DNA of 64,000 nt. Source: Mesorhizobium sp. RMAD-H1 (lineage in GTDB: Bacteria > Pseudomonadota > Alphaproteobacteria > Rhizobiales > Rhizobiaceae). The translations under genes and the position numbers were made by a program. This document shows positions 13,135 through 27,503 of the stretch, one piece after another. The notes under the pieces are model-generated. The model worked only from the letters and a program-made list of their open reading frames with translations. It ran no database searches and was not told the origin of the DNA. The stretch spans positions 124,001 to 188,000 of the forward strand of contig NZ_JACHWN010000009.1 of NCBI RefSeq assembly GCF_014191375.1, written 5' to 3'. Within the stretch, counting starts at the first letter, position 1; each line of letters begins with the position of its first letter.

Positions 13135-13138
13135 CCGT

Positions 13139-13490
13139 AGAAATGCATCATTTCCGCAGCATCCCTGCATCAAACCTGCACCATCGAAGTCTCGCGCAGC
13201 ATCATCGGCGCATCAGATGTGCATCACACCTGCATCACATTTGCACAATGCCGATGATCTGCGCTCATCGGAGCAGTTTGGACCCTCTGGATGGCCTTAA
13301 ATGGCCATCCCTTAGCCCTTAACAGGGCTATACACAATACGCACCTTGCGGTGCAGTGTAACCGTTTGATTTATAAAACTTTTCACAAAGTGCATCATTT
13401 TCGGCTGTAGTGCTCACGCACTACAAACCAGCTGGAAACCCGCAGAAATTCTGGCCTCGATGCACTACGTGACGCACTACAGGAGGCACC
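13139..13490. other. Dense repeat region: heptamer array plus inverted repeats; candidate operator and oriT/oriV
   Basis: No gene is supported in this 358-bp gap. Apart from the heptamer array (separate entry) it holds CCGATGA/TCATCGG (13251–13271), GGATGGCC/GGCCATCC (13289–13310), AGCCCT/AGGGCT (13314–13329), TGTAGTGC-TCAC-GCACTACA (13406–13425) and two further direct GCACTAC copies (13462–13468, 13474–13480). The density and the mobilisation-like gene downstream fit an origin of transfer or replication. Confidence 0.6.
13144..13248. repeat. Nine TGCATCA-type heptamers at an 11-bp period
   Basis: Block 1 has copies at 13144, 13155 (CGCAGCA), 13166 and 13177 (TGCACCA). Block 2 has copies at 13198 (AGCATCA), 13209 (CGCATCA), 13220, 13231 and 13242 (TGCACAA). 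Spacing is exactly 11 bp within each block; the blocks are 21 bp apart. A lone copy lies at 13391. TGCATCA is the reverse complement of the TGATGCA repeated before the xis–int operon. Confidence 0.85.
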
Positions 13491-13492
13491 GT

Positions 13493-13861
13493 ATGTTGGG
13501 GAACCCCCTGACGCTCCGGCTCAGCCCGGAAAAACACCTGCAATACGAGGATGAGGCCGCCCGGCGCGGCAAGCCCCTTGGCACCTATTTACGCGAACGC
13601 CTCGAAGCAGGCGATGCCGTACATGACGAGCTGGCCGCTATCCGCCGGGAGCTGTTTGGCCTGCATCGAGCAATTGATGACCTAGTCAACGAAGGCCTGA
13701 GGACGGTCGAAAAGAGAAGCGGCGGTACAACACCGCTCATGCTGGAAATTCTCCTTTTGCTCCGTGCTGTCGCCGGCATGGACAAACTCACGATGGTCAA
13801 AGGAGAGTTGAGACGCCTCGGCTACATGCCGTGGAACAAGGAGGAGGATCAGAGTGCCTAA
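13493..13861 (+). CDS. Mobilisation-accessory-like (MobC/RHH-type) DNA-binding protein
   Basis: 122 aa; AGGAGG at 13481–13486 fixes the ATG at 13493. The N-terminus NPLTLRLSPEKHLQYEDEAARRGKPLGTYLRERLEAG has the strand–helix–helix look of a ribbon-helix-helix, as in plasmid mobilisation accessory proteins. The C-terminal half is helical. It follows a repeat-rich, possibly oriT, region. Its stop overlaps the next gene start by 8 bp. No relaxase is nearby, so the partner may be in trans or lost. Confidence 0.55.
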   Translation: MLGNPLTLRLSPEKHLQYEDEAARRGKPLGTYLRERLEAGDAVHDELAAIRRELFGLHRAIDDLVNEGLRTVEKRSGGTTPLMLEILLLLRAVAGMDKLTMVKGELRRLGYMPWNKEEDQSA

Positions 13862-14225
13862 GCAAACCGTCATCATCAAGGCGGTCATCAGTCCATCTCT
13901 CAAGGCCGAATTCAAGGAAACAGTACAGCGGAAAGATCGGGTATTGAGTCAGGTCCTACGTGATCTCATCCGTGAGTATGTCTGGCGGTCGTCGAAGCGG
14001 GGGTTACCAGTGCCGGGAAAGGAATATGCTCGCCCACATGGTGACCTCATCCGGGCGGTTATTGATCCGGCTTTGAAGGAGAATTTCGAGAACGCAGCAA
14101 AGCGAAATGGCCAGCTTCCGAGCCGTGCCCTCCGTGGCCTAATCCGAGAGTACGTGCAGCGGCATGCAAAGGGCGAAATCTGGGAGCCGGGGCAGGAAAT
14201 CAAGCGTCAGATGTGGGCGAAATAG
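13854..14225 (+). CDS. Tandem ribbon-helix-helix protein (two fused RHH repeats)
   Basis: 123 aa from GTG 13854, behind GGAGGAGG. Residues about 7–45 (VISPSLKAEFKE...LSQVLRDLIREYV) and 66–105 (VIDPALKENFEN...PSRALRGLIREYV) are two copies of one RHH unit, each with a strand and two helices. The second copy ends GEIWEPGQEIKRQM, close to GELWDPGLEAKRRL of the single-RHH protein at 27640–27858. A fused pseudo-dimer of DNA-binding domains is inferred. It is probably a regulator acting at the heptamer arrays. Confidence 0.7.
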   Translation: MPKQTVIIKAVISPSLKAEFKETVQRKDRVLSQVLRDLIREYVWRSSKRGLPVPGKEYARPHGDLIRAVIDPALKENFENAAKRNGQLPSRALRGLIREYVQRHAKGEIWEPGQEIKRQMWAK

Positions 14226-14234
14226 GAGCACAGG

Positions 14235-14516
14235 ATGTCTGATCGAGCTGAGCAAATCAAAGTAGCTTTCAGTGGTCTAAATCGATCGTTCCAGATCGGG
14301 TGTGCAGTGCTTTTTGCCTGCATGGGCGGGATGTTACTTGCTACCCTCATTCTGCAGGCGCCAGACCTGCTGAAAAGCTTGCTCTACGGCGAAAAGTCGG
14401 CCGTCCGGACCATCATCGGCAGTATTGCTGGCGTGGGGCTGTGCTGGCTGCAATGGCGCTACCGTCATGTGGTTTATCCGCAGCTCCGGCGCGAGGTGCG
14501 CCAGAAAGCTATATGA
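14235..14516 (+). CDS. Small two-helix membrane protein
   Basis: 93 aa with AGGAG upstream. Hydrophobic segments CAVLFACMGGMLLATLILQA and TIIGSIAGVGLCWLQW predict two membrane helices, with short basic ends. The family is not recognised. It lies 9 bp after the tandem RHH gene and is probably co-transcribed with it. Confidence 0.6.
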   Translation: MSDRAEQIKVAFSGLNRSFQIGCAVLFACMGGMLLATLILQAPDLLKSLLYGEKSAVRTIIGSIAGVGLCWLQWRYRHVVYPQLRREVRQKAI

Positions 14517-14546
14517 GCGATACCGAGGAATGCGAGGATACGACGC

Positions 14547-14987
14547 GTGCAAATTCTGTTTCGTCCTTTCCATGCTGATGATCTCCCCGAACTTCGCACT
14601 TGGTTCGAAGATGCTGAGGTGGCGCGACGTCTATCCTTTCCGACCGATGAATGGTTCGCTTACGTGACGGCGGGCGAGACCGCCTCCTGCTGGGCGGCGA
14701 CTGGTGCCGATGACCGAATGATCGGACAACTGCAGATCGACCGAGAGGATTCGAGGCTGGGATACCTGGAGTTCGTAGTGCGCCCCGATCTTCAAGGGCG
14801 CGGCACAGGAACCGCAATGCTGAGAGGTTTTCTGGCTGGCCTTGGACAGGCCTATACCGCCCTTGAAGCTCGCATCGAGGCGGACAATTCGGTAAGCATC
14901 GCTTGTTGTCGTCGTTGTGGTTTCACAATGTTGCCTGAACGGGATGCAGACGGCTTCGCTCGGGCCATTTACCGGATGACACCATAA
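14547..14987 (+). CDS. GNAT-family N-acetyltransferase
   Basis: 146 aa from GTG 14547. The GNAT core is clear: LGYLEFVVRPDLQGRGTGTAMLRGFL contains the acetyl-CoA-binding R-x2-G-x-G-type motif, followed by ARIEADNSVSIACCRRCGFTML, the classic beta-6/alpha-4 end of the fold. The substrate is unknown. It is 30 bp after the small membrane protein and may be cargo. Confidence 0.85.
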   Translation: MQILFRPFHADDLPELRTWFEDAEVARRLSFPTDEWFAYVTAGETASCWAATGADDRMIGQLQIDREDSRLGYLEFVVRPDLQGRGTGTAMLRGFLAGLGQAYTALEARIEADNSVSIACCRRCGFTMLPERDADGFARAIYRMTP

Positions 14988-15039
14988 GCAGCTGAAACGG
15001 CTTCATGATTGCCGATTTCACATGGTGAGCTAGCAGGGT

Positions 15040-15243
15040 TTATCTGCTATTCTGGACCTCTCGGCGGACGCGCTCCTTATAAGCTTCTATCAGGTCGCCG
15101 ATTTCCATCTCACCCACGATGACACGCTCCATCTGAGTGACAACCCAGGGGTCGGGTTCCAATCCTTCAAGTCGCTGGCTTGCAAACGCGTTTTCCGCAG
15201 CTCGACGGAGCTCTGCGATTTCCTGAGCAGTGAGCTTTGCCAT
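15040..15243 (-). CDS. Orphan VbhA-like antitoxin (Fic inhibitor)
   Basis: 67 aa from ATG 15243. The inhibitory motif of Fic antitoxins, (S/T)-x3-E-(G/N), is present as SQRLEG (Ser22, Glu26, Gly27) in a helical context, and the C-terminal helices VTQMERVIVGEMEIGDLIEAYKERV match the VbhA family. VbhA blocks the AMP-transferase VbhT, often a T4SS-linked toxin. No Fic gene (HxFx(D/E)GNGR) is seen on either side, so it is an orphan, perhaps protecting against a related element. Confidence 0.75.
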   Translation of the reverse strand: MAKLTAQEIAELRRAAENAFASQRLEGLEPDPWVVTQMERVIVGEMEIGDLIEAYKERVRREVQNSR

Positions 15244-15722
15244 TTTAGATCCTATCGTTATGCCCTGCCTGCGCGGCCGCTTGGAACCACAACGCCATTT
15301 TCCCGGCTCGAATCTCCGTAATGTCTCTATGAGCTTCGGGACCACATTGACGGGAAGTCAGTGACGGGTGTGTGGCCTAAACCAGATTGACGCTTCTGGA
15401 CAGAGGACCGGGAAAGCAACCATACCGTACGCATTTCAATTACTCACGTGCGTCTAAATCTGTCCCGGCGGGCCGGGGACAAGAAAGGGGGGAGCTACTT
15501 ATACCAATACCCTCTCTAGCTCTCCATTCCGATCTTCAGGCCTGCCGTATTCCGTGTAACGCTCTCTCAACACTGATTCGAACGTATTGTCGGAATACGG
15601 CACCCACGCAGGGCAAATAAAGAACGGCATAAAACGTGCCATAGGCTCGTAAAGTGTATCTTTACGGGTTACACCCTGTCGGCTACGGTAGGACGACGCG
15701 AGAGGGCAACTAGAAGTACAAG
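15244..15722. other. Non-coding region upstream of the R-M operon, rich in inverted repeats
   Basis: I see no supported gene; a 47-codon minus-strand frame (15499–15642) has no ribosome site. Inverted repeats are CCGTATTCCG (15545–15554) with CGGAATACGG (15591–15600), and CGTAAAG-TGTAT-CTTTACG (15648–15666). No HigB-like toxin precedes the HigA-like gene. Confidence 0.6.
15648..15666. promoter_or_regulatory. Candidate operator for the HigA-like regulator
   Basis: A perfect 7-bp inverted repeat CGTAAAG-N5-CTTTACG lies 57 bp before the regulator start codon, the usual size and place for an XRE dimer site. Assignment is by position only. Confidence 0.45.
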
Positions 15723-16043
15723 ATGACTGATGAGGCCGACCCTCGGCTGAAACCCGCCCATCCAGGCGCCTTTGTGAAGCATGAGGTGCTGCAGCCTCTC
15801 GGCCTTTCCGTGACGGAAGCGGCAACCGTGCTCGGCGTCACGCGGCCCGCGCTGTCGGCGCTCCTGAACGAGCGCGCGCAACTATCGCCCGAAATGGCGA
15901 TCCGGATCGAGAAAGCGTTCGGCGTCTCAATGGAGACGCTGATGCGCATGCAGAACAGCTACGACATTGCGCAGGCCCGCAAGCGGGAAGCGGAAATCAA
16001 AGTCGAGCGATACACGGGAATGACGACGAAGGGGAAGGCATGA
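15723..16043 (+). CDS. HigA-like XRE regulator heading the type III R-M operon
   Basis: 106 aa. HPGAFVKHEVLQPLGLSVTEAATVLGVTRPALSALLNERAQLSPEMAIRIEKAFGVS is the HigA-family helix-turn-helix. The C-terminus KREAEIKVERY is usual for that family. There is no HigB toxin gene upstream or downstream. Instead its stop overlaps the methyltransferase start by 4 bp (ATGA), so it behaves by position like a controller protein of the restriction–modification operon. Confidence 0.85.
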   Translation: MTDEADPRLKPAHPGAFVKHEVLQPLGLSVTEAATVLGVTRPALSALLNERAQLSPEMAIRIEKAFGVSMETLMRMQNSYDIAQARKREAEIKVERYTGMTTKGKA

Positions 16044-17830
16044 CGGAGCTGAGTTTCAAGGGCAAGGAGTTTGTCTATAATCACCATTTGGCGGTGCCCT
16101 TCCGTCCGCTTGTGCCTGACGAAACCAAGGGCATCGGCCCTGTCGCGCTGGACGGCAACCTCATCATCCACGGCGACAATCTGCATGCGCTGAAGGCGCT
16201 GCTCCCGCTCTACGCGGGCAAGGTGGACTGCATCTTTATCGACCCGCCCTACAACACCGGCAACGAGGGCTGGTGCTACAACGACAACGTCAACGCTCCG
16301 ATGATTAAGGAGTGGCTGGAATCCAACCCTATCGGCATCGAAGACGGCCTGCGCCATGACAAATGGTGCGCCATGATGTGGCCTCGCTTGCGCCTTCTGC
16401 ACGAACTCCTTTCGGATCGTGGCAGTATTTGGATCACGCTGGATGATAATGAAGTTCATCGGGCTCGATCTTTGCTAGACGAAATCTTTGGTGAAGAAAA
16501 TTTTGTAACGTGTATCGCTTGGCAAAAAATTTATACTGTTAAGAATTCGTCTAAATATTTTAGTGGCATGCATGATCACATTATTGTTTATGCCAAGAAG
16601 AAGGATAGCTGGGTCTTAAATCTCATTCCTCGTGACGAAGAGTCTGACTATTCAAATCCGGACAATGATCCCCGAGGGGATTGGGCTACCAACGCTGTTC
16701 AGGCGAGAAACCCGTACTCAGAGGGGAAGTATGAGATTGTTTCCCCCAAGGGGCGAAAGTTCACGCCCCCAGCAGGCACTTACTGGCGAGTTAGTAAAGA
16801 TACGTTTGAGGCGCTGGATAAGGATAATAGAATTTGGTGGGGTGCGAATGGCGATAGTATTCCTCGCATCAAGAAGTTTTTGTCTGAAGCTAAAGATGGA
16901 ATAGTTCCCGCGACTATTTGGTTTCATGGCGAAAGTGGAACCAATGGTGGAGCAAAGGAATATTTAAGAGAAATATTTTCTGATGAAGACGATGTTTTCA
17001 TTACGCCAAAACCCGTAAAACTATTAAATCGCATATTCTCCATAGCCACATCGAGGGATGCCATAATATTAGATTCGTTTGCTGGATCAGGAACGACGGG
17101 GCATGCAGTCCTCGAAGCCAACAAGCGCGACGGCGGCAACCGCCGCTTCATTCTCGTGGAAATGGAAGACTATGCCGACCGACTGACGGCGGAGCGCGTT
17201 CGTCGCGTCATCAACGGCTATGACTTCAAGGGCACACAAAAGACCGAACTTCTGCGCGAGCGGTTGAACTGGCGTTCAATCAGCAATGCGGCAGATTTGG
17301 TGCATAAGGTCGAGGCTATCGAGAACCTGCACAGCCACGAATACGACCGCATCAAGAAGGAAGTGAAGGACGGAGAATTGATCGTCACCGGCGAAAAGAC
17401 GGTGGCGGAGCGCGCCGAGGGGCTTGGGGGCACCTTTACCTATTGCACGCTCGGTGATCCCGTGGAGCTGGACAAGGTGCTCAGCGGCGAAACCCTGCCG
17501 CCCTATGCCGGTCTCGGCGCGGCGCTGTTCCACATGGCAACCAACCATGCGCTCGACCCCGCCGCCGTGCGCGAAGATGATTTCTATCTCGGCGCGACGG
17601 AAGGCCAGCACGTCTGGCTGATCTACAAGCCCGATCTCGACTGGCTGAAGTCGCCGGAGGCCGCGCTGACGCTGGCGCGCGCCAAGGCATTCGCTGCCGC
17701 CGATCCGGACAAGCGGCATCTTGTCTTCGCCCCGGCGCGGTTCGTGAGCCAGAAGATGCTGGCGGAGCAGAACATTCCCGTGGAGTTCGTGCCGCTGCCC
17801 TTCGCGCTTTACCGGATAGATCGGAGCTGA
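16040..17830 (+). CDS. mod: Type III restriction–modification DNA N6-adenine methyltransferase (Mod)
   Basis: 596 aa. The catalytic motif DPPY is at residues 68–71 (FIDPPYNTG) and the SAM motif FAGSG at about 346–350, the motif IV-before-I order of beta-class methyltransferases. Mod also supplies target recognition to the Res subunit. The central part, roughly 16,480–17,095, is strikingly AT-rich against GC-rich ends and covers the target-recognition region, implying a recombinational domain swap. It is coupled to the HigA-like gene (4-bp overlap) and lies 4 bp before res. Confidence 0.93.
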   Translation: MTELSFKGKEFVYNHHLAVPFRPLVPDETKGIGPVALDGNLIIHGDNLHALKALLPLYAGKVDCIFIDPPYNTGNEGWCYNDNVNAPMIKEWLESNPIGIEDGLRHDKWCAMMWPRLRLLHELLSDRGSIWITLDDNEVHRARSLLDEIFGEENFVTCIAWQKIYTVKNSSKYFSGMHDHIIVYAKKKDSWVLNLIPRDEESDYSNPDNDPRGDWATNAVQARNPYSEGKYEIVSPKGRKFTPPAGTYWRVSKDTFEALDKDNRIWWGANGDSIPRIKKFLSEAKDGIVPATIWFHGESGTNGGAKEYLREIFSDEDDVFITPKPVKLLNRIFSIATSRDAIILDSFAGSGTTGHAVLEANKRDGGNRRFILVEMEDYADRLTAERVRRVINGYDFKGTQKTELLRERLNWRSISNAADLVHKVEAIENLHSHEYDRIKKEVKDGELIVTGEKTVAERAEGLGGTFTYCTLGDPVELDKVLSGETLPPYAGLGAALFHMATNHALDPAAVREDDFYLGATEGQHVWLIYKPDLDWLKSPEAALTLARAKAFAAADPDKRHLVFAPARFVSQKMLAEQNIPVEFVPLPFALYRIDRS

Positions 17831-17834
17831 CGCC

Positions 17835-20426
17835 GTGTTTCGCCAGCTCGATTATCAGGACCGCGTACTGTCCACGCTCGACGCCTATCTGGACCTCCTG
17901 AAGGAAAAGAAGGCGCGTGCCGACAAGGTGGCGGCGCTCGCCGCGCAGGACCCGGACCTTGGCATCGCCATTCCGGATTTCTCGAAGGAGGCTTGGGAAG
18001 CCATGAAGGCGGCGGGCAAGCTGCCCGCATCCCGCGCGGCCATTCCGTTTTCGCCCCGCGTGGACGGTTGCGGACGCCCCGTGCCCAACGCGGTGCTGAA
18101 GGTGCCAACCGGCGGGGGCAAGACCTGGCTTGCCGTCTCTGCCGTGTCGCGGGTGATGGGCCGCTATCTCGACCGCAATACCGGATTTGTGCTGTGGATC
18201 GTGCCGAACGAAGCGATCTACACGCAAACGCTGAAGCACCTGAAGGACCGCCAGCATCCCTACCGTCAGGCGCTCGACCGCGCGGCGGCAGGCCGCGTGA
18301 AGATCATGGAGAAGACCGACAGGCTCGACGCGCGGGACGTGGAAACGAACCTCTGCGTCATGCTGCTGATGCTGCAATCCGCGAACCGCGAGACGCAGGA
18401 TTCCCTGAAAATGTTTCAGGATCGCGGCGACGTGCATGGGTTCTTCCCGCCTGAAGGGGAGCAACAAGCCCACAAGGCAGCGATAGAGCTGACCCCGAAC
18501 CTTGCGGCCTATACGGGCATGTTTCCGATGGTGAAGGACTCCCTCGGGAACGCCCTTCGTGTCATCCGGCCCGTGGTCGTGATGGACGAAGGCCACAGGG
18601 CGATCTCCGATCTCGCCTTCAGCACGCTCTACGGCTTCAACCCGTGTTTCGTGCTGGAGCTGACGGCAACGCCGCAGGACGTTCAGCCGCGCGGCGGTCG
18701 CAATCCGCGCGAAGGCCGCTACGCCAATGTGCTCGTTGAAGTGACCGGGCGCGAGCTGGACCGCGAAGGCATGATCAAGATGCCGCTCAACCTCGACCCC
18801 CGGCAGGGCAACGACTGGAAAGCGACGCTCAACGCGGCGCTTGCCAAGCTCAACACCCTCGATGCGGAGGCCCGCAAGCTCCGCGCCGATACCGGGCGCT
18901 ATATTCGACCGATCATGCTGATCCAGGTCGAGCGCACGGGTGCGGACCAGCGCGAAAGCGGGCACATCCACGCCGAGGACGTGAAGGACTGGCTCCTGAC
19001 GGCGGGCTTCTATCAGGCGGAAATCGCGATCAAAACCGCGCAGCAAAACGATCTCAGCGATCCGGAAAATCAGGACCTGCTATCTCCGACCAATCGGGTA
19101 CGGGCGATCATCACGAAGCAGGCGCTGCAAGAAGGCTGGGATTGCCCCTTCGCCTATGTGCTGTGCAGCCTCGCGGCCAGCGCCAACCTCAAGGCTATGA
19201 CGCAGCTTGTTGGCCGCATCCTTCGGCAACCCGGCGCGCTCAAGACGGGCGTCGAAGCGCTCGATGAATGCCACGTCATCACGCATCACGCCGATACCGC
19301 TACTGTCGTCGGCGCGATCAAGGATGGCCTCGAACAGGACGGCCTTGGCGATCTTGTCCTGCGCGTCACGCAGGATGACAAGAGCGCATCGGGCAAGGCG
19401 ACGCGGACGATCAAACGCCGCCCCGCCTTCGCCAGCACGGAGATCTACCTGCCCAAGGTGATGGTGGTGAAGGACGGTGAAGCGCGCGAGCTGGACTATG
19501 AAACCGATGTGCTCGCGGCGATAGACTGGCGCGGCTTCGACCCCAAGGAAATTGCCAAACGCATTCCCGAGAACGCACAGGCGGCGGAAAGCCAGCTTCA
19601 GCGGATCAGGCTTGCCGAGGACGGCGACGAACTCTTTGTCGGCGAAACGGTTGCCGCCAATACCGAGATTCTTGCCTTCGATCCGGCACATGCGGTGCGG
19701 ATGATTTCCGACATCGTGCCCAACCCCTTTGTCGGGCGCGAGATTGTCGGCGCAACGCTCGCCGCCCTGCGAGCGCGGGGCTTCGATGATGCGAAGCTCG
19801 GCCTACTCGCCAGCCTCATCGTGGAGGAATTGCGCAAGGGCCTCGATGCGGCACGAAATACCCGCGCCGAAGCCCTGTTCAAGGCGGAGGTCGCGGCGGG
19901 GCGTATCCAGTTCCGCCTGCGGCTCGATGGCCGCAACTGGCGGATGCCCTTCAGCATCGAAACGACGGAACCGGAGAACGCGCGCCAGCTTCTCAACCGG
20001 GCGGGCGGTCCGCTCGAAAAGAGCCTGTTCGCTCCGGTCTATGAGAACGAGCTGAACGGCGACGAGCGGGATGTCGCCGTCTATCTCGACGGCGAAAAGA
20101 CACTCGCCTGGTGGCACCGAAACGTCGCGCGGACGCAGTACGGTATTCAGGGATGGAAGAAGGCCAAAATCTATCCGGACTTCATCTTTGCCGTGCAGCG
20201 CCAAGGCGAGGCCAAGCGGATCACCGTGCTCGAAACGAAGGGTGATCAGCTCGACAATCTCGACACGGCCTACAAGCGCGAAGCGCTGGCGTTTCTCTCG
20301 GAACATTTCCAGTGGGACGAGGCAACGCCAGTCGGCGAGCTGGAGCTGGTCAACAACGGTGAGACCGTGGAAGGTACTTTGATCCTCATGAGCGAATGGA
20401 AGGCGAAGCTGCCGGCATATCTTTAA
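17835..20426 (+). CDS. res: Type III restriction endonuclease subunit (Res)
   Basis: 863 aa from GTG 17835, 4 bp after mod. SF2 helicase motifs are PTGGGKT (91–97), DEGH (251–254), TATP (277–280) and QLVGRILR (457–464). The C-terminal PD-(D/E)xK nuclease is visible as YPDF (from about 780) and LETKG (from 799). Res translocates or slides and cleaves between two unmethylated head-to-head sites. All motifs are intact, so the system is probably active. Confidence 0.93.
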   Translation: MFRQLDYQDRVLSTLDAYLDLLKEKKARADKVAALAAQDPDLGIAIPDFSKEAWEAMKAAGKLPASRAAIPFSPRVDGCGRPVPNAVLKVPTGGGKTWLAVSAVSRVMGRYLDRNTGFVLWIVPNEAIYTQTLKHLKDRQHPYRQALDRAAAGRVKIMEKTDRLDARDVETNLCVMLLMLQSANRETQDSLKMFQDRGDVHGFFPPEGEQQAHKAAIELTPNLAAYTGMFPMVKDSLGNALRVIRPVVVMDEGHRAISDLAFSTLYGFNPCFVLELTATPQDVQPRGGRNPREGRYANVLVEVTGRELDREGMIKMPLNLDPRQGNDWKATLNAALAKLNTLDAEARKLRADTGRYIRPIMLIQVERTGADQRESGHIHAEDVKDWLLTAGFYQAEIAIKTAQQNDLSDPENQDLLSPTNRVRAIITKQALQEGWDCPFAYVLCSLAASANLKAMTQLVGRILRQPGALKTGVEALDECHVITHHADTATVVGAIKDGLEQDGLGDLVLRVTQDDKSASGKATRTIKRRPAFASTEIYLPKVMVVKDGEARELDYETDVLAAIDWRGFDPKEIAKRIPENAQAAESQLQRIRLAEDGDELFVGETVAANTEILAFDPAHAVRMISDIVPNPFVGREIVGATLAALRARGFDDAKLGLLASLIVEELRKGLDAARNTRAEALFKAEVAAGRIQFRLRLDGRNWRMPFSIETTEPENARQLLNRAGGPLEKSLFAPVYENELNGDERDVAVYLDGEKTLAWWHRNVARTQYGIQGWKKAKIYPDFIFAVQRQGEAKRITVLETKGDQLDNLDTAYKREALAFLSEHFQWDEATPVGELELVNNGETVEGTLILMSEWKAKLPAYL

Positions 20427-20449
20427 AGGGGCATACTTGAGGGGGGCGT

Positions 20450-20665
20450 ATGGAATTCGATCCGGCATTGTCATTCTCGGACAACTTGGCGCGTTTTCGG
20501 GCCGAAGCTGAGGGCATTGACGCTGAGTGCGCGCGCATTCTTTTCGACAAACTGGCCGTGCTCATGCGCGACGGCGATGCGACACGCACGCGTCAAGCTG
20601 TTCAAGAGTTCAATCAGGCCGTACTCGTCGCACTCGACGGCCTGCCGGAAGGGCCTGCGGCATGA
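20450..20665 (+). CDS. Small hypothetical protein in the R-M operon
   Basis: 71 aa from ATG 20450 behind GAGGGGGG. It is helical and acidic (MEFDPALSFSDNLARFRAEA at the start). The family is not recognised. Its stop overlaps the ATPase start by 4 bp (ATGA) and it starts 23 bp after res, so it sits firmly in the same operon and may be an adaptor between the restriction enzyme and the ATPase. Confidence 0.6.
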   Translation: MEFDPALSFSDNLARFRAEAEGIDAECARILFDKLAVLMRDGDATRTRQAVQEFNQAVLVALDGLPEGPAA

Positions 20666-23160
20666 GTCGGTACTTTCTCGCCTCCGCCGCCATTGAAGGC
20701 TTTCGCGGCATCAACAATGACGGTGACCCGCTCGTGCTGAAGTTCAAGCACGATGCCGTCAATTCCGTGCACGCCCCTAACGGCGTCGGCAAAAGCTCGA
20801 TCTTTGAAGCCCTGCATTTCGCCTTGCATGGCACAGTTCCGCGCCTCGAAAACATGCAGGACGCCGAGCAGGGTGGCAGCTACATCGTTAACAAGTTCCA
20901 TCCCGCGCAACAAGCGACGGTCGCTCTCGTTTTCAAGAGCGACGACGGCACGCCCGATGTCTCGATCACCGTCACGCGGACAGCTGCAGGCCACAGAGTC
21001 GTCACGTCTCCTTCCGGCCACGCCGATCCGGAGGGCTTCCTTGCCAATCTTTGCGAAGATTTCGTGCTGGTCGATTACCCGCGCTTTGCGTCCCTCGTGG
21101 ACTGCTCGGCACTAGAGCGCGGGCGCTCTTTTGCCACGCTGGTAGGCATGAGCCGGTATTCCCAGCTCCGGCAGGCGCTAGACGGAGCCAAGAACACCCG
21201 TAACATCAACAGCGATCTTGGGCTGTCGGCGCTTGATACCGAAGTCACCGCCGAAAACCGGGCGTTGGCGGCGGTGGAGCAACGTATCCTTACCGCGCAT
21301 CAGGAAGTGACCGGCGCGGCTGGCGGCCAGATGACGGATACTGCCGCCTTGAAAGCGCAGGTGACGGCGGGGCTGGCGGGTATTGCGCTCTTCGCGCCGT
21401 TGCTCGCCAACACGACAGTGATGGACCTCGATTTCGACGCCGCTGAAAAGATCGTCGATCAGGAGGAAGGAGGAGCCGCCCGTAAAACCCTCGACGAGCT
21501 GAATACCGCCGCTGCGACTCTGAACGGCTTAGCCGTGTCGGCTGCGGAGCTTTCAGAGATTGACGCTCTGGTGTCGGCGGCGAAAGCGCGCGACGAGGCG
21601 ATGCGCAAAGTCGGCGCGGCCAGTCTGCACGCCTTGCTGAAAGACGCGCTCGCAGTCGTGAGCAGTGCGGACTGGCATGATCCGAAGGTCTGTCCCGTTT
21701 GCGAGAAGGCAGGCGACGGACCGCTACAGGATCAACTGAAAACGAAGATCGCGCTTTACGATGAGGCCGATCAGTTCGACGCGGAGTTGAAACGGCATGT
21801 GCAGAGCGCAGGATGCGTCGGCAAGCTCCGGCAGCTTGAAGAGCAGGCGCGTCTTGGCATTGCGGATGCTGATCGCATCGCACCGGTCCTGACTTTGACC
21901 GCGCGCCAGTCGTCGATTTCAACGGCGGACTTGGAACGCGCGAAGGACGCGCTTGCCGCGCTCGAAACGAAGCGCGTTGAAGTTCTCACGGCGGTCAATG
22001 CCGAGATTGCGACGCTGCAAGCCAGCTTGCCGCCGTCGCTGGTCGCCGTCACCCGCACCCTTGGACAGGCCAAGCAATTCCGCGACGCCATGAACGAATA
22101 CGAGCGCGCGCTTCCCGCGCTCGCCGCGAAACGTGCTCGGCTCGCCAAACTCAATCGCTGGAAGGCCTTCATCACGAATGTCGCCCAGCAGTTTGCGACT
22201 GCCGAAAGTGCTCTAGCCAACGCGCGGATTGCGGACATTCAAACCACTTGCCAGCAGCTTTTCGGCGATCTGGTGCGTGGCGGCCCCAATGTGCAGCCGA
22301 CGCTAAACCGCGCACACAATACCGAGCAGGTGGATTTGAAGCTCGCCGATTTCTTCGGCCTAGCAAATCAAAGTGCGCGCGCACTCTTGTCGGAGAGTTA
22401 CCGGAACGCCGTCGCCGCCTCTATTTTCATGGCAGCGGCCACACGGCACCAAGGTATACCGCGCTTCATGGTTCTAGACGATGTGACTTCTAGCTTCGAT
22501 GCCGGACACCAGTTCAGCCTGATGGATACAATCCGGACGAAGCTGCGCTACGGCGCACCTAACGGCCTGCCCGGCGGTCTGCAATTCATCATTCTCAGCC
22601 ACGACACGAGCTTGGAGAAGTATTTTGACAGGCTTAACGGCACTACCGAGTGGAATCACCAGAAGTTGCAAGGCATGCCGCCCCGTGGTCGGCTCATGAT
22701 TGCCGCGCAGCAGGCCGACCGCCTCAAGGTGCAGGCCGAACAATACCTGAATGCAGGACAGATAGATATTGGGGAGCCGTTCGTCCGCCAGTATCTTGAG
22801 TACAAGCTGGGCCAGATCGTCACCCGATTAGAGATACCCGTGCCGCCCGACTACGCGACACGGGGCGATAAGCGCACCCTGTCCACCTATATAGATGCGA
22901 TTACGGCGGCGGTTGATCTCTATCAGGCAGCGGGACGCTGCATTCTGTCTTCCCAACAGGTCGCTGATCTCCAGAACCACCACATGCCGTCGATCATGGC
23001 GAACTATGTCAGCCATTATGAAACAGGCGCGGGGAATCCGTTCAATGCCTATGCCCTGCTCGGCGTGTTACAAAGTGTGGACGCGCTTGCGGATTGTTTC
23101 TGTTGGACCGATCCTACCAACAACCGGCGCAGGTATTACCGGCGGCTTGATCGACGATGA
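20662..23160 (+). CDS. Rad50/SMC-like ATPase with a CxxC hook, linked to type III R-M
   Basis: 832 aa. The N-terminal Walker A APNGVGKSS is at 38–46, and the Walker B region FMVLDDVTSSFDAGH at about 602–616. Between them are long helical arms interrupted by CPVC (about 344–347), a possible zinc hook as in Rad50/RloC. ILSHDTSLEKYF resembles the switch/H-loop of ABC-type ATPases. The roughly 190 residues after the ATPase have no motif I recognise. It is translationally coupled to the small gene upstream, making a HigA–Mod–Res–small–ATPase operon. A role in phage defence is inferred. Confidence 0.75.
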   Translation: MSRYFLASAAIEGFRGINNDGDPLVLKFKHDAVNSVHAPNGVGKSSIFEALHFALHGTVPRLENMQDAEQGGSYIVNKFHPAQQATVALVFKSDDGTPDVSITVTRTAAGHRVVTSPSGHADPEGFLANLCEDFVLVDYPRFASLVDCSALERGRSFATLVGMSRYSQLRQALDGAKNTRNINSDLGLSALDTEVTAENRALAAVEQRILTAHQEVTGAAGGQMTDTAALKAQVTAGLAGIALFAPLLANTTVMDLDFDAAEKIVDQEEGGAARKTLDELNTAAATLNGLAVSAAELSEIDALVSAAKARDEAMRKVGAASLHALLKDALAVVSSADWHDPKVCPVCEKAGDGPLQDQLKTKIALYDEADQFDAELKRHVQSAGCVGKLRQLEEQARLGIADADRIAPVLTLTARQSSISTADLERAKDALAALETKRVEVLTAVNAEIATLQASLPPSLVAVTRTLGQAKQFRDAMNEYERALPALAAKRARLAKLNRWKAFITNVAQQFATAESALANARIADIQTTCQQLFGDLVRGGPNVQPTLNRAHNTEQVDLKLADFFGLANQSARALLSESYRNAVAASIFMAAATRHQGIPRFMVLDDVTSSFDAGHQFSLMDTIRTKLRYGAPNGLPGGLQFIILSHDTSLEKYFDRLNGTTEWNHQKLQGMPPRGRLMIAAQQADRLKVQAEQYLNAGQIDIGEPFVRQYLEYKLGQIVTRLEIPVPPDYATRGDKRTLSTYIDAITAAVDLYQAAGRCILSSQQVADLQNHHMPSIMANYVSHYETGAGNPFNAYALLGVLQSVDALADCFCWTDPTNNRRRYYRRLDRR

Positions 23161-23194: not shown

Positions 23195-23300
23195 AACCTG
23201 CAACGTCTCTCAATGGTCCTGAAATGGCGGGAAATCTCGCGTCTTGGATGTTGCAGGTTATAGATGCGGGTGAGAGAATAGTTGCACAATAATCTGCAAC
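23195..23300. repeat. res-like repeat cluster before the serine recombinase
   Basis: AACCTGCAAC (23195–23204) is an exact inverted repeat of GTTGCAGGTT (23250–23259). Further partial copies are GTTGCA (23281–23286) and CTGCAAC (23294–23300), the last just before the ribosome site. The arrangement fits the multi-subsite res of resolvases and would also let the recombinase repress itself. Confidence 0.6.
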
Positions 23301-23310
23301 AGGAGTGGAT

Positions 23311-23934
23311 ATGGACCAGAGAATCGATCCGAGGACTCACGACGGACGGATACTGATCGGGTATGCCCGTGTGTCGACGGACGATCAGGACCTAAGCAAT
23401 CAGCGAGATGATCTGATCGCGGCAGGCTGTTCCAGAATCTTCGCCGAAAAGATCACAGGTGCTCGGCGTGATCGTCCGGAGCTTGAGCGGATGCTTGACC
23501 ACTTGCGTCCGGGGGATGTGGTGACGGTTACGCGGCTTGATCGCCTGGCCCGCAGCACGCGTGACCTGCTGGAGATTGCTGAGCTGTTGCAGGCCAAGAG
23601 CGCGGGGCTGCGCAGCCTCGCCGAGCCTTGGGCAGACACCACGACGCCGGCGGGCCGAATGGTGCTGACCGTTTTTGCGGGTATCGCGGAATTCGAGCGT
23701 AGTCTGATCGTGGAGCGAACCAGAAGAGGGCGCGTCGCGGCCAAGATGCGGGGTGTGCGGTTCGGTCCTCAGCCCAGCTTATCGGGCGCTCAGATTGAGC
23801 ATGCACGGCATTTGATCGACGCCGAAGGCAGGACCGTGAACGAGGTGGCCGCGCTGTTGAATGTGCATCGCACGACACTCTACCGGGCCCTTGTAAAGGA
23901 TCAAGGCAAGCAGCGCCGAATTGACGTCCGGTAA
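23311..23934 (+). CDS. Serine recombinase (resolvase/invertase family)
   Basis: 207 aa from ATG 23311 (AGGAG at 23301–23305; a GTG at 23305 is in frame). The catalytic Ser22 is in YARVSTDDQD; the conserved DRLARSTRDLLEI, AEFERSLIVERTRRG (E helix) and C-terminal HTH EVAALLNVHRTTLYRAL are complete. Length and layout are those of Tn3-type resolvases and Pin-type invertases. No transposase is nearby, so it may resolve island multimers or be a transposon remnant. Confidence 0.92.
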   Translation: MDQRIDPRTHDGRILIGYARVSTDDQDLSNQRDDLIAAGCSRIFAEKITGARRDRPELERMLDHLRPGDVVTVTRLDRLARSTRDLLEIAELLQAKSAGLRSLAEPWADTTTPAGRMVLTVFAGIAEFERSLIVERTRRGRVAAKMRGVRFGPQPSLSGAQIEHARHLIDAEGRTVNEVAALLNVHRTTLYRALVKDQGKQRRIDVR

Positions 23935-23966
23935 CAAGAAGAGCTAAAGTTGTGATCACGAAGAAG

Positions 23967-23996
23967 AAACCCCAGAGGTTGCCGCCTCTGGGGTTT
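23967..23996. terminator. Terminator after the serine recombinase
   Basis: A perfect 12-bp stem AAACCCCAGAGG/CCTCTGGGGTTT with a 6-nt loop lies 32 bp after the stop codon; U-rich flanks occur on both sides. Confidence 0.75.
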
Positions 23997-24453
23997 CGGA
24001 TTCTCTCAACTGAGACAGCAGCGAGAGAACCGCGTCCTCATAGTGTACCGGTCTTCCCGACCACCTCGCAACATCTGTCCCACCGAGAGAATCCCTATGG
24101 CCGCCACCGTGTGGCGTGGAACGTGGCCGGAGGGGTTGGATTCGAGAGCTTGTTACCCTCCTGGCCGTGGCGGTCGGACCGAACGGGGAGTCCTCACATA
24201 CGGTCCAGCGTGCGACGCGCGTCCAAGGCTTGCTAGAGTCGCGATCTGGCAGCACTGCATCGAGGGTAACGGGTATCCACCAACGGCCACCTCGTAAAAG
24301 ACGGCGCGGCGGCTCGGCTTTATGCGGGAGTCAAAGCAGTGCAGCAGCATGTGGCGTGTCTCTCCGGCGCGTGAGGGGGGCAAGATCGGGCCACCGGTCT
24401 ACCGATAGCGGAGAGCAAGGCGGACCATCCTGAAGCCATCGGCGGAAGGAGGG

Positions 24454-24490
24454 CGAGCCTGTCTTGGAGCGCAGCGGAAAGACAGGCTCG
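24454..24490. terminator. 12-bp hairpin of unknown purpose
   Basis: CGAGCCTGTCTT (24454–24465) and AAGACAGGCTCG (24479–24490) are exact reverse complements with a 13-nt loop. There is no gene immediately upstream on either strand and no long U-run. Confidence 0.4.
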
Positions 24491-24781
24491 TTCCAGTATC
24501 TATCCGCTTGAACTACTAGGCCGTGAACCTATACATGCCACCGGCTGAGATGGGGTGGGAAGCGGAATGACGGTTTTTCGTTTCACGACCCGGCAAGGCA
24601 GACGTCGCTGCGACGGACGGCCCGGGACACGGTGCGGGACGAGAGTTTGTTGACCACTGGATCGCCACGCTGCAGGGCGTGAAACGTGCCAGCCGGCCAG
24701 TTGCTTCACGGGGACCGCTACCTTTAAGACGGCTGACGGCCCTGCTGGTTAAGCGGCCCCGCAGGCAGAAGGGCGGAGTGA

Positions 24782-25255
24782 TCAAAGCCAGCGGCGAACC
24801 TCGGCCTTGTAGCGGCGGTAGTCGTCGCCGAACTTCGCTTCGAGATAGCGCTCCTCGCGGGCGATCACCTGCGTCTGGATCGCGATCAGCACCAACGGGA
24901 GCAAGGCGAAGGCGATCGGCCCGTCGAAGCCGATCGCAAGGCCGGCATAGATAAGCGCCATGCCGAGATACATGGGATTGCGGGTCCATCGATAAGGACC
25001 GGTCGTCGCGATGAGGGTCGTTGGCCGCGACGGCGGAACGTTGGTGCCCAGCCGCCGGAACAGCCCCGCCGCCGCAAGCATCACCGCCGCGCCGGCAACG
25101 AACAGCAGCGCGCCTGCTGCGACCAGCAACCGGCAGTCGATGCCGAAAGAGCGCAGGGTGACGAACCGCTCGATCCCTAGCCCCAAGAGCAGCGCTCCCA
25201 GATAGACGAAGGGGGGAGGGAAACGCACACCCGCGCTGTCCGGTTCGACGGCCAT
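24782..25255 (-). CDS. Isoprenylcysteine carboxyl methyltransferase-family (ICMT/PEMT-like) membrane protein
   Basis: 157 aa with four or five hydrophobic helices (for example VYLGALLLGLGIERF and LLVAAGALLFVAGAAVML). The family signature TGPYRWTRNPMYLGMALIYAG and the C-terminal EERYLEAKFGDDYRRYKAEV are present. Bacterial members are integral-membrane, SAM-dependent methyltransferase-like proteins, mostly of unknown substrate. It lies 21 bp downstream of the oxidoreductase gene in the same operon. Confidence 0.8.
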   Translation of the reverse strand: MAVEPDSAGVRFPPPFVYLGALLLGLGIERFVTLRSFGIDCRLLVAAGALLFVAGAAVMLAAAGLFRRLGTNVPPSRPTTLIATTGPYRWTRNPMYLGMALIYAGLAIGFDGPIAFALLPLVLIAIQTQVIAREERYLEAKFGDDYRRYKAEVRRWL

Positions 25256-25276
25256 GCTTGTCTCCAGTCCGTGTTC

Positions 25277-26290
25277 TCAGGCCAGCATCGACTGCTGGGC
25301 GAAGATACCCGCCATCGCGCCGTGCGATGAAGCCAGGGTGACCGATGGCGGCGTAATAGGGTTGGCGAGGTCGCCGGCGGCGTAGATGCCAGGCATGCTT
25401 GTTTCGCGGCGCTCGTTGACCTTGAGGATGACGCCGAGGGGCGTATCGACCGTGGCGAGGCCCAGTGATTCATGCAGGCTTGCAGACGGCTTGTTGCGCG
25501 GATGCGCGAACAGGATGTCGACCGCTACGTCAGGGCCGGTATCGAGCTTGACGGTGGCGTTATGGCCCCCGTGATGGGCGATCTCGACGATCCGGCCATC
25601 GACGATGGGCGTGTTGCGACGCGCCAGATCGGTTCGGATATCGGGCGAAATGTCGTGACCATCGGCGAAGACCGTCAACCTGTCGGTCCAATCGTGGAAC
25701 AGCCTGACCTGGTTGTGCGACTGCGGACCGGACCAGACGAGGCCCCAATGCTGGCCGGCGACTTCAAAGCCGTCGCAATAGGGGCAAGGCACGATGGACT
25801 TGCCCCAGCCTTCGGCAAAGCCCGGAACATCAGGCATCTGGTCGACGACGCCGTAGCTTAGGATCAGGCGGCGCGCGCCAAGGATTTCGTTATCGTCAGT
25901 GACGACGCTGAAATTGTCGATTGCGCCAGACACGCTCTCGGCCCGGGCATTGACCAGCCGGATCGTGGGATAGCGCGTCAGCTGCTGCCGCGCCTCGGCC
26001 AGGATGTCCAACGGCGGCTTGTGATCGTGGCCGAGCAGGCCATGCGAGTGGCCGGCGAAGCGGTTTCGCGGGAGGCCGGTATCGAGAACGGTGACCTTGC
26101 GGCGGGCACGGCCGAGCTGCAGCGCGGCGGCGAGACCGGCAAAACTTCCGCCGATAATGATGACGTCATCCATGGTGACTGGCTCCCTGTTCTGGATGGA
26201 TGGGGACGGGCTGGCTTCGGCAGTGGGGTGAGCGCGAACGGCGCCGAGAGCGGAAACTGCGGCCAGCTTCAGCAAAGTTCGTCGTTGCAT
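25277..26290 (-). CDS. Thioredoxin-reductase-like FAD/NAD(P) oxidoreductase
   Basis: 337 aa if started at ATG 26290; an internal ATG at 26173, with AGGGAG upstream, gives the 298-aa cytosolic form starting MDDVIIIGGSFAG. Motifs are the FAD GGSFAGLAAA, the redox-site-like CPYCDGFE and the C-terminal GIYAAGDLA. The long form adds a Tat-like leader (RRTLLKLAAVSALGA). In place of a canonical second GxGxxG nucleotide site I see only WSGPQSHNQVRL. It is divergent from a TetR gene that probably controls it. Confidence 0.82.
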   Translation of the reverse strand: MQRRTLLKLAAVSALGAVRAHPTAEASPSPSIQNREPVTMDDVIIIGGSFAGLAAALQLGRARRKVTVLDTGLPRNRFAGHSHGLLGHDHKPPLDILAEARQQLTRYPTIRLVNARAESVSGAIDNFSVVTDDNEILGARRLILSYGVVDQMPDVPGFAEGWGKSIVPCPYCDGFEVAGQHWGLVWSGPQSHNQVRLFHDWTDRLTVFADGHDISPDIRTDLARRNTPIVDGRIVEIAHHGGHNATVKLDTGPDVAVDILFAHPRNKPSASLHESLGLATVDTPLGVILKVNERRETSMPGIYAAGDLANPITPPSVTLASSHGAMAGIFAQQSMLA

Positions 26291-26401
26291 CGTCTCTGTG
26301 TCCTAGGTCGCCGACATCGTCAGACAACGCTCTTGCATATTTTCGAAACTGCGTGGTATCGTAATTCAGGAGTTAGGATACTGTCAAGGACTGTAATTAT
26401 C

Positions 26402-27049
26402 GTGAGCGAAAATAGTCGAAGCCGGAGAGGCCGGCCCGCCAACGAGGCGCTTGGCCAAACCATTGTCGACACCGCGGGCGAACTCTTTGCGGAATTGGGT
26501 TTTCAGGCGACGACGTTGGACAAGGTCGCCCAGCGAGCGAAGATATCGAAGCTCAGCATCTACAGGCACTTCGAGAACAAGGAGGCGCTGTTCGGCGCGG
26601 CCTTTGCGGCCCGCTGTCAGCAGTTGATCCCACAGGCGCTTTTCGAAGGCGTCGACGGCTCGGCCGAGGATCAGCTTATGGCGGTGGGATCATCACTGCT
26701 TCGCACGCTGCTGCGCCCGGACGTCCGCAACGTCGAAGCCATGGTCATGGCCGATACGCCGAACCAAAAGTCGTTGAGCAAGGTCCATTACGAAGCCGGC
26801 CCCGCCCATATCGTTGCCCAAATCGAGGCCTTGCTGCGTCAGCTGCACGCGAAGGCGGTCCTGAACGTGCCCGATCCTCTCCGGTCCGCCCGCCTGTTTG
26901 CCGCGCTTTTCAAAGGATCGGATCTTCTGATGATCTCGCGCTTTGATGAGGCGAGAGCAGAGAACGACAACGAAATCGAATCCTATTGCCGGTCGGCCGT
27001 CGCCATGTTCATCGCCGCGCACGGTGGCAACGACCACGCGGGCGGATAG
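26402..27049 (+). CDS. TetR-family transcriptional regulator
   Basis: 215 aa from GTG 26402. RRGRPANEALGQTIVDTAGELFAELGF begins the TetR DNA-binding domain, and TTLDKVAQRAKISKLSIYRHFENKEALFGAAF is its HTH. The remainder is a helical ligand-binding domain. It is divergent from the oxidoreductase–methyltransferase pair with a 111-bp AT-rich intergenic region, the usual setting for a local repressor. The ligand is unknown. Confidence 0.88.
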   Translation: MSENSRSRRGRPANEALGQTIVDTAGELFAELGFQATTLDKVAQRAKISKLSIYRHFENKEALFGAAFAARCQQLIPQALFEGVDGSAEDQLMAVGSSLLRTLLRPDVRNVEAMVMADTPNQKSLSKVHYEAGPAHIVAQIEALLRQLHAKAVLNVPDPLRSARLFAALFKGSDLLMISRFDEARAENDNEIESYCRSAVAMFIAAHGGNDHAGG

Positions 27050-27178
27050 ATTGATCGACTTCCCCATCGATGTCCCCGCCGACCAGCTGGGCCAGGCAGC
27101 CCCGATCAACCACCCCGCGCCTCCCGCTCTAATGGAGAAGCTAGCTCTAACGTTCCGCAATGTCTGCTCTCAGGATGA

Positions 27179-27373
27179 TCATCCAAGGGCCTGGATGGCT
27201 GGGATGGGTCGAATTGCGACCTCCCCAACGTCGAGAATCAATGTCTCGAACGGATTGTGCCGACTTACGGCAATGATTCAGCTCGCCTCATTGCGGCTTT
27301 GGCTTCGGGCTTATCACTCTACGACGTCGTCACGCACCTGTTCGCAGACCCGCTAGAGGTTCCTTTCGCGTGA
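27179..27373 (+). pseudogene. Possible C-terminal gene fragment
   Basis: A 64-codon open stretch between stops has protein-like composition, containing NVENQCLERIVPTYGNDSAR and LIAALASGLSLYDVVTHLF, but no start codon with a ribosome site. It could be the remaining end of a deleted gene. The family is not recognised. Confidence 0.35.
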
Positions 27374-27452
27374 GGAAAGCCCGTTTTTCGGATCGTCCGG
27401 CTGAGGTGATTCGCCCAATGCGAGAGCAGCCGTCATAGTGCGGACGGAAGGA

Positions 27453-27503
27453 TGATGCTGAGTTGATGCAAACATAATGCAAATTTGATGCATTAATGAT
27501 GCA
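27453..27503. repeat. Five TGATGCA-type heptamers at an exact 11-bp period
   Basis: Copies start at 27453 (TGATGCT), 27464, 27475 (TAATGCA), 27486 and 27497, each exactly 11 bp after the last, so all face the same side of the helix. They lie 137–187 bp upstream of the RHH gene start. The heptamer is the reverse complement of the one at 13144–13248. Confidence 0.88.

What the first reader, a model, noticed from the sequence alone, without database searches (positions are those of the whole stretch)
13144..27503. Two arrays of one heptamer at an exact 11-bp period, each beside RHH regulators of the same family
TGATGCA-type heptamers occur as 4 + 5 copies at 13144–13248 (as TGCATCA) and as 5 copies at 27453–27503. 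Within every block the period is exactly 11 bp, one helical turn. The first array precedes a mobilisation-like gene and a tandem RHH gene; the second precedes the RHH–xis–int operon. The RHH units of the two operons are plainly related (LSQVLRDLIREYV against LSQLLRDLIREYV). A single RHH-based switch controlling both mobilisation and excision is inferred. Known RHH operator arrays such as those of the omega repressor use contiguous 7-bp heptads, so an 11-bp pitch would be a different architecture.
Basis: partly seen in the sequence, partly recalled or inferred. Interest (0 to 1): 0.85.

Follow-up and report, generated by a model that had tools for sequence, protein, structure and literature searches.

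The report
Island mimicking a helper plasmid's StbA-sites
A chromosomal island that carries only a few pieces of a DNA-export machine has, beside its predicted transfer origin and in front of its integrase genes, repeat arrays with the same motif and spacing as the StbA-binding arrays of the conjugative plasmid R388, so it likely hitch-hikes on R388-like plasmids and its arrays would be read by their StbA protein, not, as first thought, mainly by the island's own small regulators.

Summary
In detail: 4+5 and 5 TGATGCA-type heptamers lie at an exact 11-bp pitch, unmatched in shuffled sequence. The interpretation changes. The same heptamer at the same pitch forms the stbDRs of IncW plasmid R388, which bind StbA (published; not an RHH, by recall). 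The window holds a ~23-kb integrative mobilizable element, bounded by a 63-bp repeat in tRNA-Val, with R388-like virB5, eex, virB6, trwA and a predicted oriT. R388's relaxase, coupling protein, StbA and its other T4SS genes searched for are not in the island. Array 1 lies beside oriT, as in R388; array 2 precedes RHH–xis–int. Ten related elements from alpha- and betaproteobacteria all have an R388-type nic region and an 11-bp array (TGATGCA-type in 9), none a detectable StbA; further arrays precede rep-like and eex–virB6 genes. All 14 stbA upstream regions examined have 11-bp arrays, most with other heptamers, so the pitch is not a new RHH architecture. Most likely these are helper-type StbA sites in an SGI1-like hitch-hiker. 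Who reads them is untested: predicted RHH DNA-facing strands vary while the heptamer stays, and one element lacks the RHH at its usual place. An RHH reader is not excluded.

The parts
6065..6127 (.). attL: left copy of the 63-bp direct repeat
   Evidence: exact direct repeat of 29192-29254
6208..6951 (+). HTH_36 protein, weakly similar to the rep-like genes that stand behind arrays in related elements
   Evidence: HTH_36 E 2.4e-4, below cut-off; 28.75% over 80 aa to the L089 protein, E 1.7e-5; no array in front of it here
11159..11845 (+). virB5-like gene
   Evidence: 64.6% to R388 VirB5
11848..12096 (+). eex-like lipoprotein gene
   Evidence: 56% to R388 Eex
12106..13134 (+). virB6-like gene
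   Evidence: TrbL/VirB6 E 6.4e-47; 64% to R388 VirB6
13144..13183 (-). array 1, block a: 4 heptamers, 11-bp pitch
13198..13248 (-). array 1, block b: 5 heptamers, 11-bp pitch
13325..13345 (+). R388-type nic region (predicted oriT), 20 of 21 bases as in R388
13493..13861 (+). trwA-like relaxosome accessory gene (NikA-like by Pfam, below cut-off)
   Evidence: 51.7% to R388 TrwA
13854..14225 (+). tandem RHH protein
   Evidence: (RHH_9)
14235..14516 (+). small protein, membrane protein by eye, the conserved neighbour of the RHH gene
   Evidence: homologue in 10 of 10 elements
27453..27503 (+). array 2: 5 heptamers, 11-bp pitch
27640..27858 (+). single RHH protein
27855..28211 (+). predicted excisionase (HTH_17)
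28046..29257 (+). tyrosine integrase
   Evidence: Phage_integrase E 1.8e-15
29192..29254 (.). attR: right copy of the 63-bp repeat, overlapping the tRNA-Val gene
29208..29282 (-). tRNA-Val (gac), the integration site

Best explanation
The island is an integrated element that has an R388-like nic region (its predicted transfer origin) and R388-like VirB5, Eex, VirB6 and TrwA genes but none of the ten other R388 transfer genes that were searched for, and its two heptamer arrays match R388's StbA-binding repeats in motif and pitch, so it likely travels on R388-like conjugative plasmids and its arrays would be bound by the helper's StbA. Shown here: anatomy, att repeat, nic region, heptamer and pitch, conservation in ten elements, no detectable StbA in the stretches held of all ten. 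Published for R388: StbA binds stbDRs, lowers transfer, stabilises the plasmid and represses promoters, among them some with the same sites. Inferred: (1) array 1 puts the island's oriT, once excised, under helper StbA (plasmid-like positioning and transfer control); (2) array 2 makes RHH-xis-int part of the StbA regulon, silent while StbA is present and active in a burst in a cell where StbA has not yet built up, which would time integration or excision; (3) VirB5, Eex and VirB6 replace the helper's subunits, as SGI1's TraN, TraH and TraG do for IncC. The RHH proteins are taken to be local regulators or relaxosome partners; whether they also touch the arrays is open.
For: R388 carries the heptamer at 11-bp pitch in its stbDRs and at four further places; Guynet 2011 (PMC3098194, passages): two sets of five TTGCATCAT spaced by 2 nt, bound by StbA in gel shift, acting in cis on stability and transfer. 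Fernandez-Lopez 2014 (PMC3937220, passages): StbA represses its own promoter 50-fold, four leading-region promoters and, more weakly, the KorA-controlled T4SS promoters. Copy profile: 92 copies in 8 elements T92 G81 A69 T86 G91 C92 A75, 22 in R388 T21 G17 A18 T21 G21 C22 A19 (the scan model favours this consensus). nic region 1-3 of 21 bases from R388 in 10 of 10 elements. Array placed beside the nic region as in R388. None of VirB1-like, VirB2, VirB3, VirB4, VirB8, VirB9, VirB10, VirB11, TrwB, TrwC in the island at E 0.01. No StbA in 10 of 10 elements with 13 StbA queries (best E 0.067, outside the island), nor in the own genome with R388 StbA (best E 0.319). 11-bp arrays upstream of stbA in 14 of 14 regions examined. 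Among the best 40 of 1118 plasmid records, window VirB6 is closest to BPP5P1 (83%), then the IncW clade (62-64%), its near relatives (59-61%) and the B. multivorans plasmids (51%); the rest are at 36.5% or less. Helper-site mimicry has a precedent: SGI1 parS copies (PMC10954446, abstract).
Against: No StbA and no R388-type TrwB was found in this genome, so the supposed reader is absent now and something else must keep xis-int quiet. The genome does hold VirB4-type genes (35% to R388's), so another conjugation system is resident and could be the helper. StbA is a repressor, so helper sensing would work the opposite way to SGI1's activator. In R388 the repressor ArdK shares several StbA target promoters, so StbA may not be the only reader there. 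The RHH gene is the first gene of the int operon, as expected of an autorepressor, and 9 of 10 elements have an RHH of this family; the tenth has a weak RHH-like ORF (E 0.056). No binding data. No sigma-70-like promoter was found at either array, so an operator role is unproven.
Confidence: 0.55

Rival explanations
1. One reading: the island's RHH proteins are the readers. The tandem RHH (a fused pseudo-dimer) and the single RHH bind the 11-bp arrays, autorepress the int operon and control oriT, virB and rep genes as one regulon; the likeness to stbDRs reflects common descent of the DNA with a change of reader.
For: An RHH of this family is present in 9 of 10 elements with arrays and a weak RHH-like ORF in the tenth, StbA in none. 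Array 2 directly precedes an operon that starts with an RHH gene. In G634 an array heads the orf-virB5-eex-virB6-RHH-membrane-protein operon. Codon changes between window and Chelativorans J32 are few and mostly silent: 3 against 1 in the tandem RHH, 6 against 1 in the single RHH. RHH proteins can use 11-bp repeats (R1 ParR; PMC9426499 passage).
Against: The strands that would read bases differ (TVIIKAVI and DLIRAVI in the tandem protein, DAVHARV in the int-operon RHH, TVIRTVI in G687, KAFCHYGV in G634) while the heptamer stays TGRTGCA; the strand register is inferred by eye and the AlphaFold model failed. R388 has the same arrays and a known other reader. The G673 element has arrays but no RHH between its trwA remnant and the membrane-protein gene.
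Confidence: 0.3
2. The arrays are inherited leftovers: the oriT block including its stbDRs was taken from an IncW-like plasmid and the arrays have no present role in the island.
For: Array 1 has decayed copies (2 of 9 with two mismatches), and the island and its genome lack a detectable StbA.
Against: Array 2 and the arrays before eex-virB6 (L016, L017) and before HTH-rep genes (L088, L089, L120) are not beside oriT, so they were placed or kept there; the J32 copy of array 2 is 5 of 5 exact; the TGC core is kept in nearly all 92 copies.
Confidence: 0.1
3. Chance or simple tandem duplication.
For: Exact triple arrays do turn up in viral contigs (8 stretches in 2.9 million contigs; none with a match to the island or R388 queries at E 0.01 in the stretches held).
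Against: Shuffles give nothing comparable; the spacers differ between copies; same place beside the nic region in ten elements.
Confidence: 0.01

Closest known systems
stbDRs of IncW plasmid R388 and its StbA
   Same: Same heptamer (within TTGCATCAT), same 11-bp pitch, two neighbouring blocks beside the same type of nic region, further arrays elsewhere in the plasmid.
   Different: The island has no detectable StbA, StbB or StbC; array 2 stands before RHH-xis-int; array 1 lies between virB6 and oriT, not between oriT and stbA.
SGI1 and other IncC-dependent mobilizable islands (PMC5389848 and PMC10954446, abstracts)
   Same: Integrated, helper-dependent by content, carries its own versions of a few T4SS subunits, copies helper sites; in relatives, excision, replication and T4SS genes stand behind one kind of site.
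   Different: R388-type instead of IncC-type parts; the copied site belongs to a repressor/segregation protein, not to the activator AcaCD; alpha- and betaproteobacterial hosts.
ParR-parC of plasmid R1 (11-bp repeats; PMC9426499 passage) and omega repressor heptads (recalled)
   Same: RHH proteins on arrays of short direct repeats; R1 parC has 11-bp repeats.
   Different: ParM not looked for; the RHHs here are RHH_9-like; binding to the arrays not shown.
oriT-mimicking mobilizable islands and 'hitchers' (PMC11389934, passages)
   Same: oriT of a helper type without a complete conjugation machine.
   Different: Here the StbA-type array goes with the oriT and stands again at other promoters.

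Membership tests
stbDR-type StbA sites | 9-bp TTGCATCAT-like repeats separated by 2 nt (11-bp pitch) | tested here: met
stbDR-type StbA sites | lies beside the R388-type nic region | tested here: met
   array 1 only: 76 bp from the nic core; array 2 is not at oriT, as with the additional R388 arrays
stbDR-type StbA sites | bound by StbA | not testable with these tools
   needs gel shift
stbABC system | stbA, stbB and stbC encoded next to the repeats | tested here: not met
   no StbA in the island or genome, no StbB or StbC in the window; so it is not filed as an stb system, only as carrying stbDR-like sites
Integrative and mobilizable element | integrase and att repeats at a tRNA gene | tested here: met
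Integrative and mobilizable element | own oriT but no complete conjugation machine | tested here: met
   nic core 13325-13345; of ten further R388 transfer proteins only VirB11 matches in the window (E 0.006 at 5509-5769, outside the island); VirB7 not searched
Integrative and mobilizable element | excision and transfer with a helper | not testable with these tools
   needs mating
SGI1 family | AcaCD-controlled, IncC-type TraN/TraH/TraG | not tested
   parts present are R388-type; used only as a functional parallel
RHH operator array (ParR/parC, omega) | array of short direct repeats next to an RHH gene | tested here: met
   array 2 to RHH, 136 bp
RHH operator array (ParR/parC, omega) | the RHH reads the repeat | tested here: inconclusive
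   strand residues vary while the heptamer is constant; no usable structure

The most novel reading that the evidence does not exclude
These elements are a broad family of parasites of R388-type plasmids that copied the helper's StbA centromere/operator to at least four of their own control points (oriT, virB genes, rep-like genes, integrase), and their RHH proteins have evolved to compete with StbA for the same sites on both island and helper, so that the island senses a helper by repressor exchange and can unlock the helper's StbA-repressed transfer genes.
Probability: 0.15. Interest if true: 0.85.

Novelty: new variant of a known kind. Interest (0 to 1): 0.62.

Why it matters
R388 is a model for how plasmids balance vertical stability against transfer through StbA and its repeats. 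A family of mobilizable elements that carries those repeats without StbA would show that the StbA site itself is worth stealing, extend helper-site mimicry (known from SGI1 and IncC) to a repressor/segregation site, and give natural test objects for the open question of how this segregation protein works in trans. It also corrects the view that an 11-bp array beside RHH genes must be a new RHH operator architecture.

Tried and rejected
RHH as the sole explanation was weakened, not excluded: see rivals. On rechecking the G673 element, which I had first called RHH-free, proved to have a weak RHH_9-like ORF before its eex gene (E 0.056, below cut-off); I lowered the best explanation from 0.58 to 0.55 and raised the RHH rival from 0.27 to 0.30 for that. 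AlphaFold2 of the tandem RHH gave mean pLDDT 47 and was not used; no fold search was run. Sequence search of PDB with the tandem profile gave only weak hits (CopG-type, RelB, NikR and others, E 0.014 to 0.27). Two viral-contig RHH scans found no relative; the viral-contig pattern scan gave 8 stretches without related genes in the parts held. Class-wide pattern scan: 3 of 385 genomes matched, the own one and two single hits (G382, G541); the G541 flank was read and shows no island genes, the G382 flank was only scanned with the protein queries. Profile search with the tandem RHH in 268 genomes of the family of G587: 72 genomes matched, but only 4 above 50 bits (G587, G586, G687, G634); of the 26 weak matches given as loci none has a TGATGCA array within about 1.5 kb. 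In the same 268 genomes 12 matched TGRTGCA triples with up to 1 mismatch: 5 are elements of this kind (G586, G587, G634, G673, G687), 3 were inspected without finding island genes (G608, with only a RepA-like match; G680; G697), 4 were not inspected (G600, G694, G698, G800). The 14 stbA regions were picked by hand from the lists (332 records; 15 records) plus one plasmid; several are related, so 14 of 14 is not 14 independent cases, and the shuffles there keep base composition only. In 13 of these loci TGATGCA itself (3 or more copies, up to 1 mismatch) was found in 2, both IncW type. The Burkholderia multivorans array (ATAGGAC, 5 copies in one 11-bp register, at most 2 in 200 shuffles, motif chosen after the fact; as five consecutive slots it does not beat shuffles) is weaker evidence. 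StbA search in the genomes of L014-L017: two of four had a match, G587 (E 1.2e-8, a separate StbA-StbB-TrwB element, L090, with no TGATGCA array before its stbA) and G584 (E 0.016, not followed). Several loci are contig pieces of 6-20 kb, so absences there are absences from the stretch held.
Full report
Observation. Array 1 has nine copies in two blocks (13144, 13155, 13166, 13177; 13198, 13209, 13220, 13231, 13242), array 2 five copies (27453 to 27497); the pitch is exactly 11 bp inside every block and the two blocks of array 1 are 21 bp apart. Seven of the 14 copies are exact. In the 5.14-Mb genome the two exact TGATGCA-N4-TGATGCA pairs both lie in these arrays. Shuffled sequence gives nothing of the kind.

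What the island is. A 63-bp direct repeat at 6065-6127 and 29192-29254, the second copy overlapping the tRNA-Val gene and the 3' end of the integrase gene, bounds an element of about 23 kb. It carries virB5, eex and virB6 genes 65, 56 and 64% identical in protein to those of IncW plasmid R388, and a trwA gene 52% identical. Between array 1 and trwA lies a 21-base match (one mismatch) to the nic region of R388. Of R388's VirB1-like protein, VirB2, VirB3, VirB4, VirB8, VirB9, VirB10, VirB11, TrwB, TrwC, StbB and StbC, only VirB11 matches in the window (E 0.006, outside the island); VirB7 was not searched. StbA is not found in the window or in the genome (best E 0.32); R388-type TrwB is not found in the genome, while VirB4-type genes at 35% identity are, so some other conjugation system is resident. 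The right end is RHH-xis-int; cargo includes a type III restriction-modification pair and an SMC-like ATPase.

The arrays are stbDR-like. R388 has TGATGCA at 11-bp pitch in its stbDRs and at four further places. The R388 paper (PMC3098194, passages) describes two sets of five TTGCATCAT repeats spaced by two nucleotides next to oriT, bound by StbA in gel shift and needed in cis for its effects on stability and transfer. A second paper (PMC3937220, passages) reports that StbA represses its own promoter 50-fold, four leading-region promoters and, more weakly, the T4SS promoters, that another repressor, ArdK, shares several of these targets, and that such loops overshoot after transfer. From recall, StbA's DNA-binding domain is a helix-turn-helix; I did not find the structure paper, and Pfam has no match to StbA. 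In 14 of 14 intergenic regions upstream of stbA that I examined, 11 was the best period between 8 and 16 and beat all 60 composition shuffles, although most use another heptamer (regions chosen by hand, several related). So the 11-bp pitch is the habit of StbA sites, and this heptamer is the IncW version of them.

Relatives. Counting the window, VirB6 (in L015 in part) and the small neighbour protein are present in 10 of 10, an R388-type nic region (1 to 3 of 21 bases different) in 10 of 10, a TGATGCA-type 11-bp array in 9 of 10, an RHH of this family in 9 of 10 (tandem in 6, single in 3), StbA in 0 of 10, a TrwC-type relaxase in 1 of 10 (L088, 70%). Several loci are contig pieces, so absences apply to the stretch held. 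The tenth, B. multivorans, has a weaker 11-bp array of ATAGGAC next to its nic region. Elsewhere arrays also stand before eex-virB6 (L016, L017) and before a small HTH gene followed by a rep-like gene (L088, L089; in L120 the HTH gene is followed by another ORF). The array thus marks four kinds of place: oriT, T4SS-subunit genes, rep-like genes and the integrase operon.

Who reads them. For StbA: identity of the site, its place at oriT, and an element (L120) with arrays, nic region and neighbour-protein gene but no RHH between them; its trwA is a remnant, it may be decayed, and it has a weak RHH-like ORF before eex. For the RHHs: they are the regulator family shared by nearly all the elements, they head or end array-led operons, codon changes in them are few and mostly silent, and no StbA is at hand in this genome. 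Against the RHHs: the strand that reads DNA in RHH proteins varies strongly between elements with the same heptamer, and between the two RHHs of this island, while the helices (LSQVLRDLIREYV) hardly change. That argument is inferred from sequence only; the structure prediction failed. I give helper StbA the larger share.

Working model. Shown: an integrated element with an R388-type nic region, spare T4SS subunits, and StbA-type arrays at oriT and before the integrase operon. Inferred: an R388-like plasmid supplies relaxase, coupling protein and pore; its StbA binds array 1 (positioning and transfer control of the excised circle) and array 2 (repression of RHH-xis-int, with a burst when the element is in a cell without StbA). 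The spare VirB5, Eex and VirB6 may swap into the helper's pore, as TraN, TraH and TraG of SGI1 do for IncC (PMC5389848, abstract). SGI1 also carries copies of its helper's parS sites (PMC10954446, abstract), the nearest precedent for stealing a segregation site.

Novelty. Searches for StbA, stbDR, R388, IncW, TrwA, hitcher and mobilizable elements (listings read) showed no title or abstract describing such elements in the open-access library; subscription papers were not searchable. The review of hitchers (PMC11389934, passages) mentions R388 as a helper of RSF1010. I rate it a new variant of a known kind: a helper-dependent mobilizable element that mimics helper sites.

Noticed in passing
window 12106-13134 against L014 8253-9281: VirB6 of the island and of the Chelativorans J32 element differ in amino acid at 127 of 343 codons (ungapped comparison), while TrwA and the tandem RHH differ at one each: the virB-eex block seems to be swapped between elements, perhaps to change exclusion type.
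   Followed up: partly
window 14235-14516: A small protein, membrane protein by eye, follows the RHH gene and is also present in the element that lacks the RHH at that place (L120); it has no Pfam family above cut-off and may be a functional partner.
   Followed up: partly
window 6026-6127: The left att copy is preceded by a further stretch resembling the integrase C-terminus (34 aa, 79% identical including the repeat), suggesting an older element in the same tRNA-Val site.
   Followed up: no
window 16040-23160: Cargo: type III restriction-modification pair followed by an 877-aa AAA/SMC-like ATPase, possibly a defence module.
   Followed up: no
own genome, contigs C8 55125-57473 and C1 17189-18505: VirB4-type genes (35% to R388 VirB4): one or two other T4SS are resident and could serve as helper.
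   Followed up: no
L012 8375-8527 and L015 10711-10788: Short remnants of the C-terminal part of trwB lie behind the RHH and neighbour-protein genes, a trace of descent from a trwA-trwB operon.
   Followed up: no
L088 4609-7473: The G687 element carries its own TrwC-type relaxase (70% identical) but no TrwB was found in the fetched stretch.
   Followed up: no
L090: The Allopusillimonas soli genome also holds a separate StbA-StbB-TrwB-VirB10-VirB11 element, a candidate helper; no TGATGCA array was seen before its stbA.
   Followed up: partly
upstream of stbA in L039, L040, L042, L045, L047, L056: StbA plasmids seem to have 11-bp arrays with lineage-specific heptamers, often ending in GCA; this could be used to predict StbA specificity and incompatibility.
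   Followed up: partly
proteins P0004 and P0008: Two tandem-RHH relatives are filed under Escherichia coli in the protein collection, but a distant DNA search of 13100-14240 in the complete E. coli genomes found no match.
   Followed up: partly
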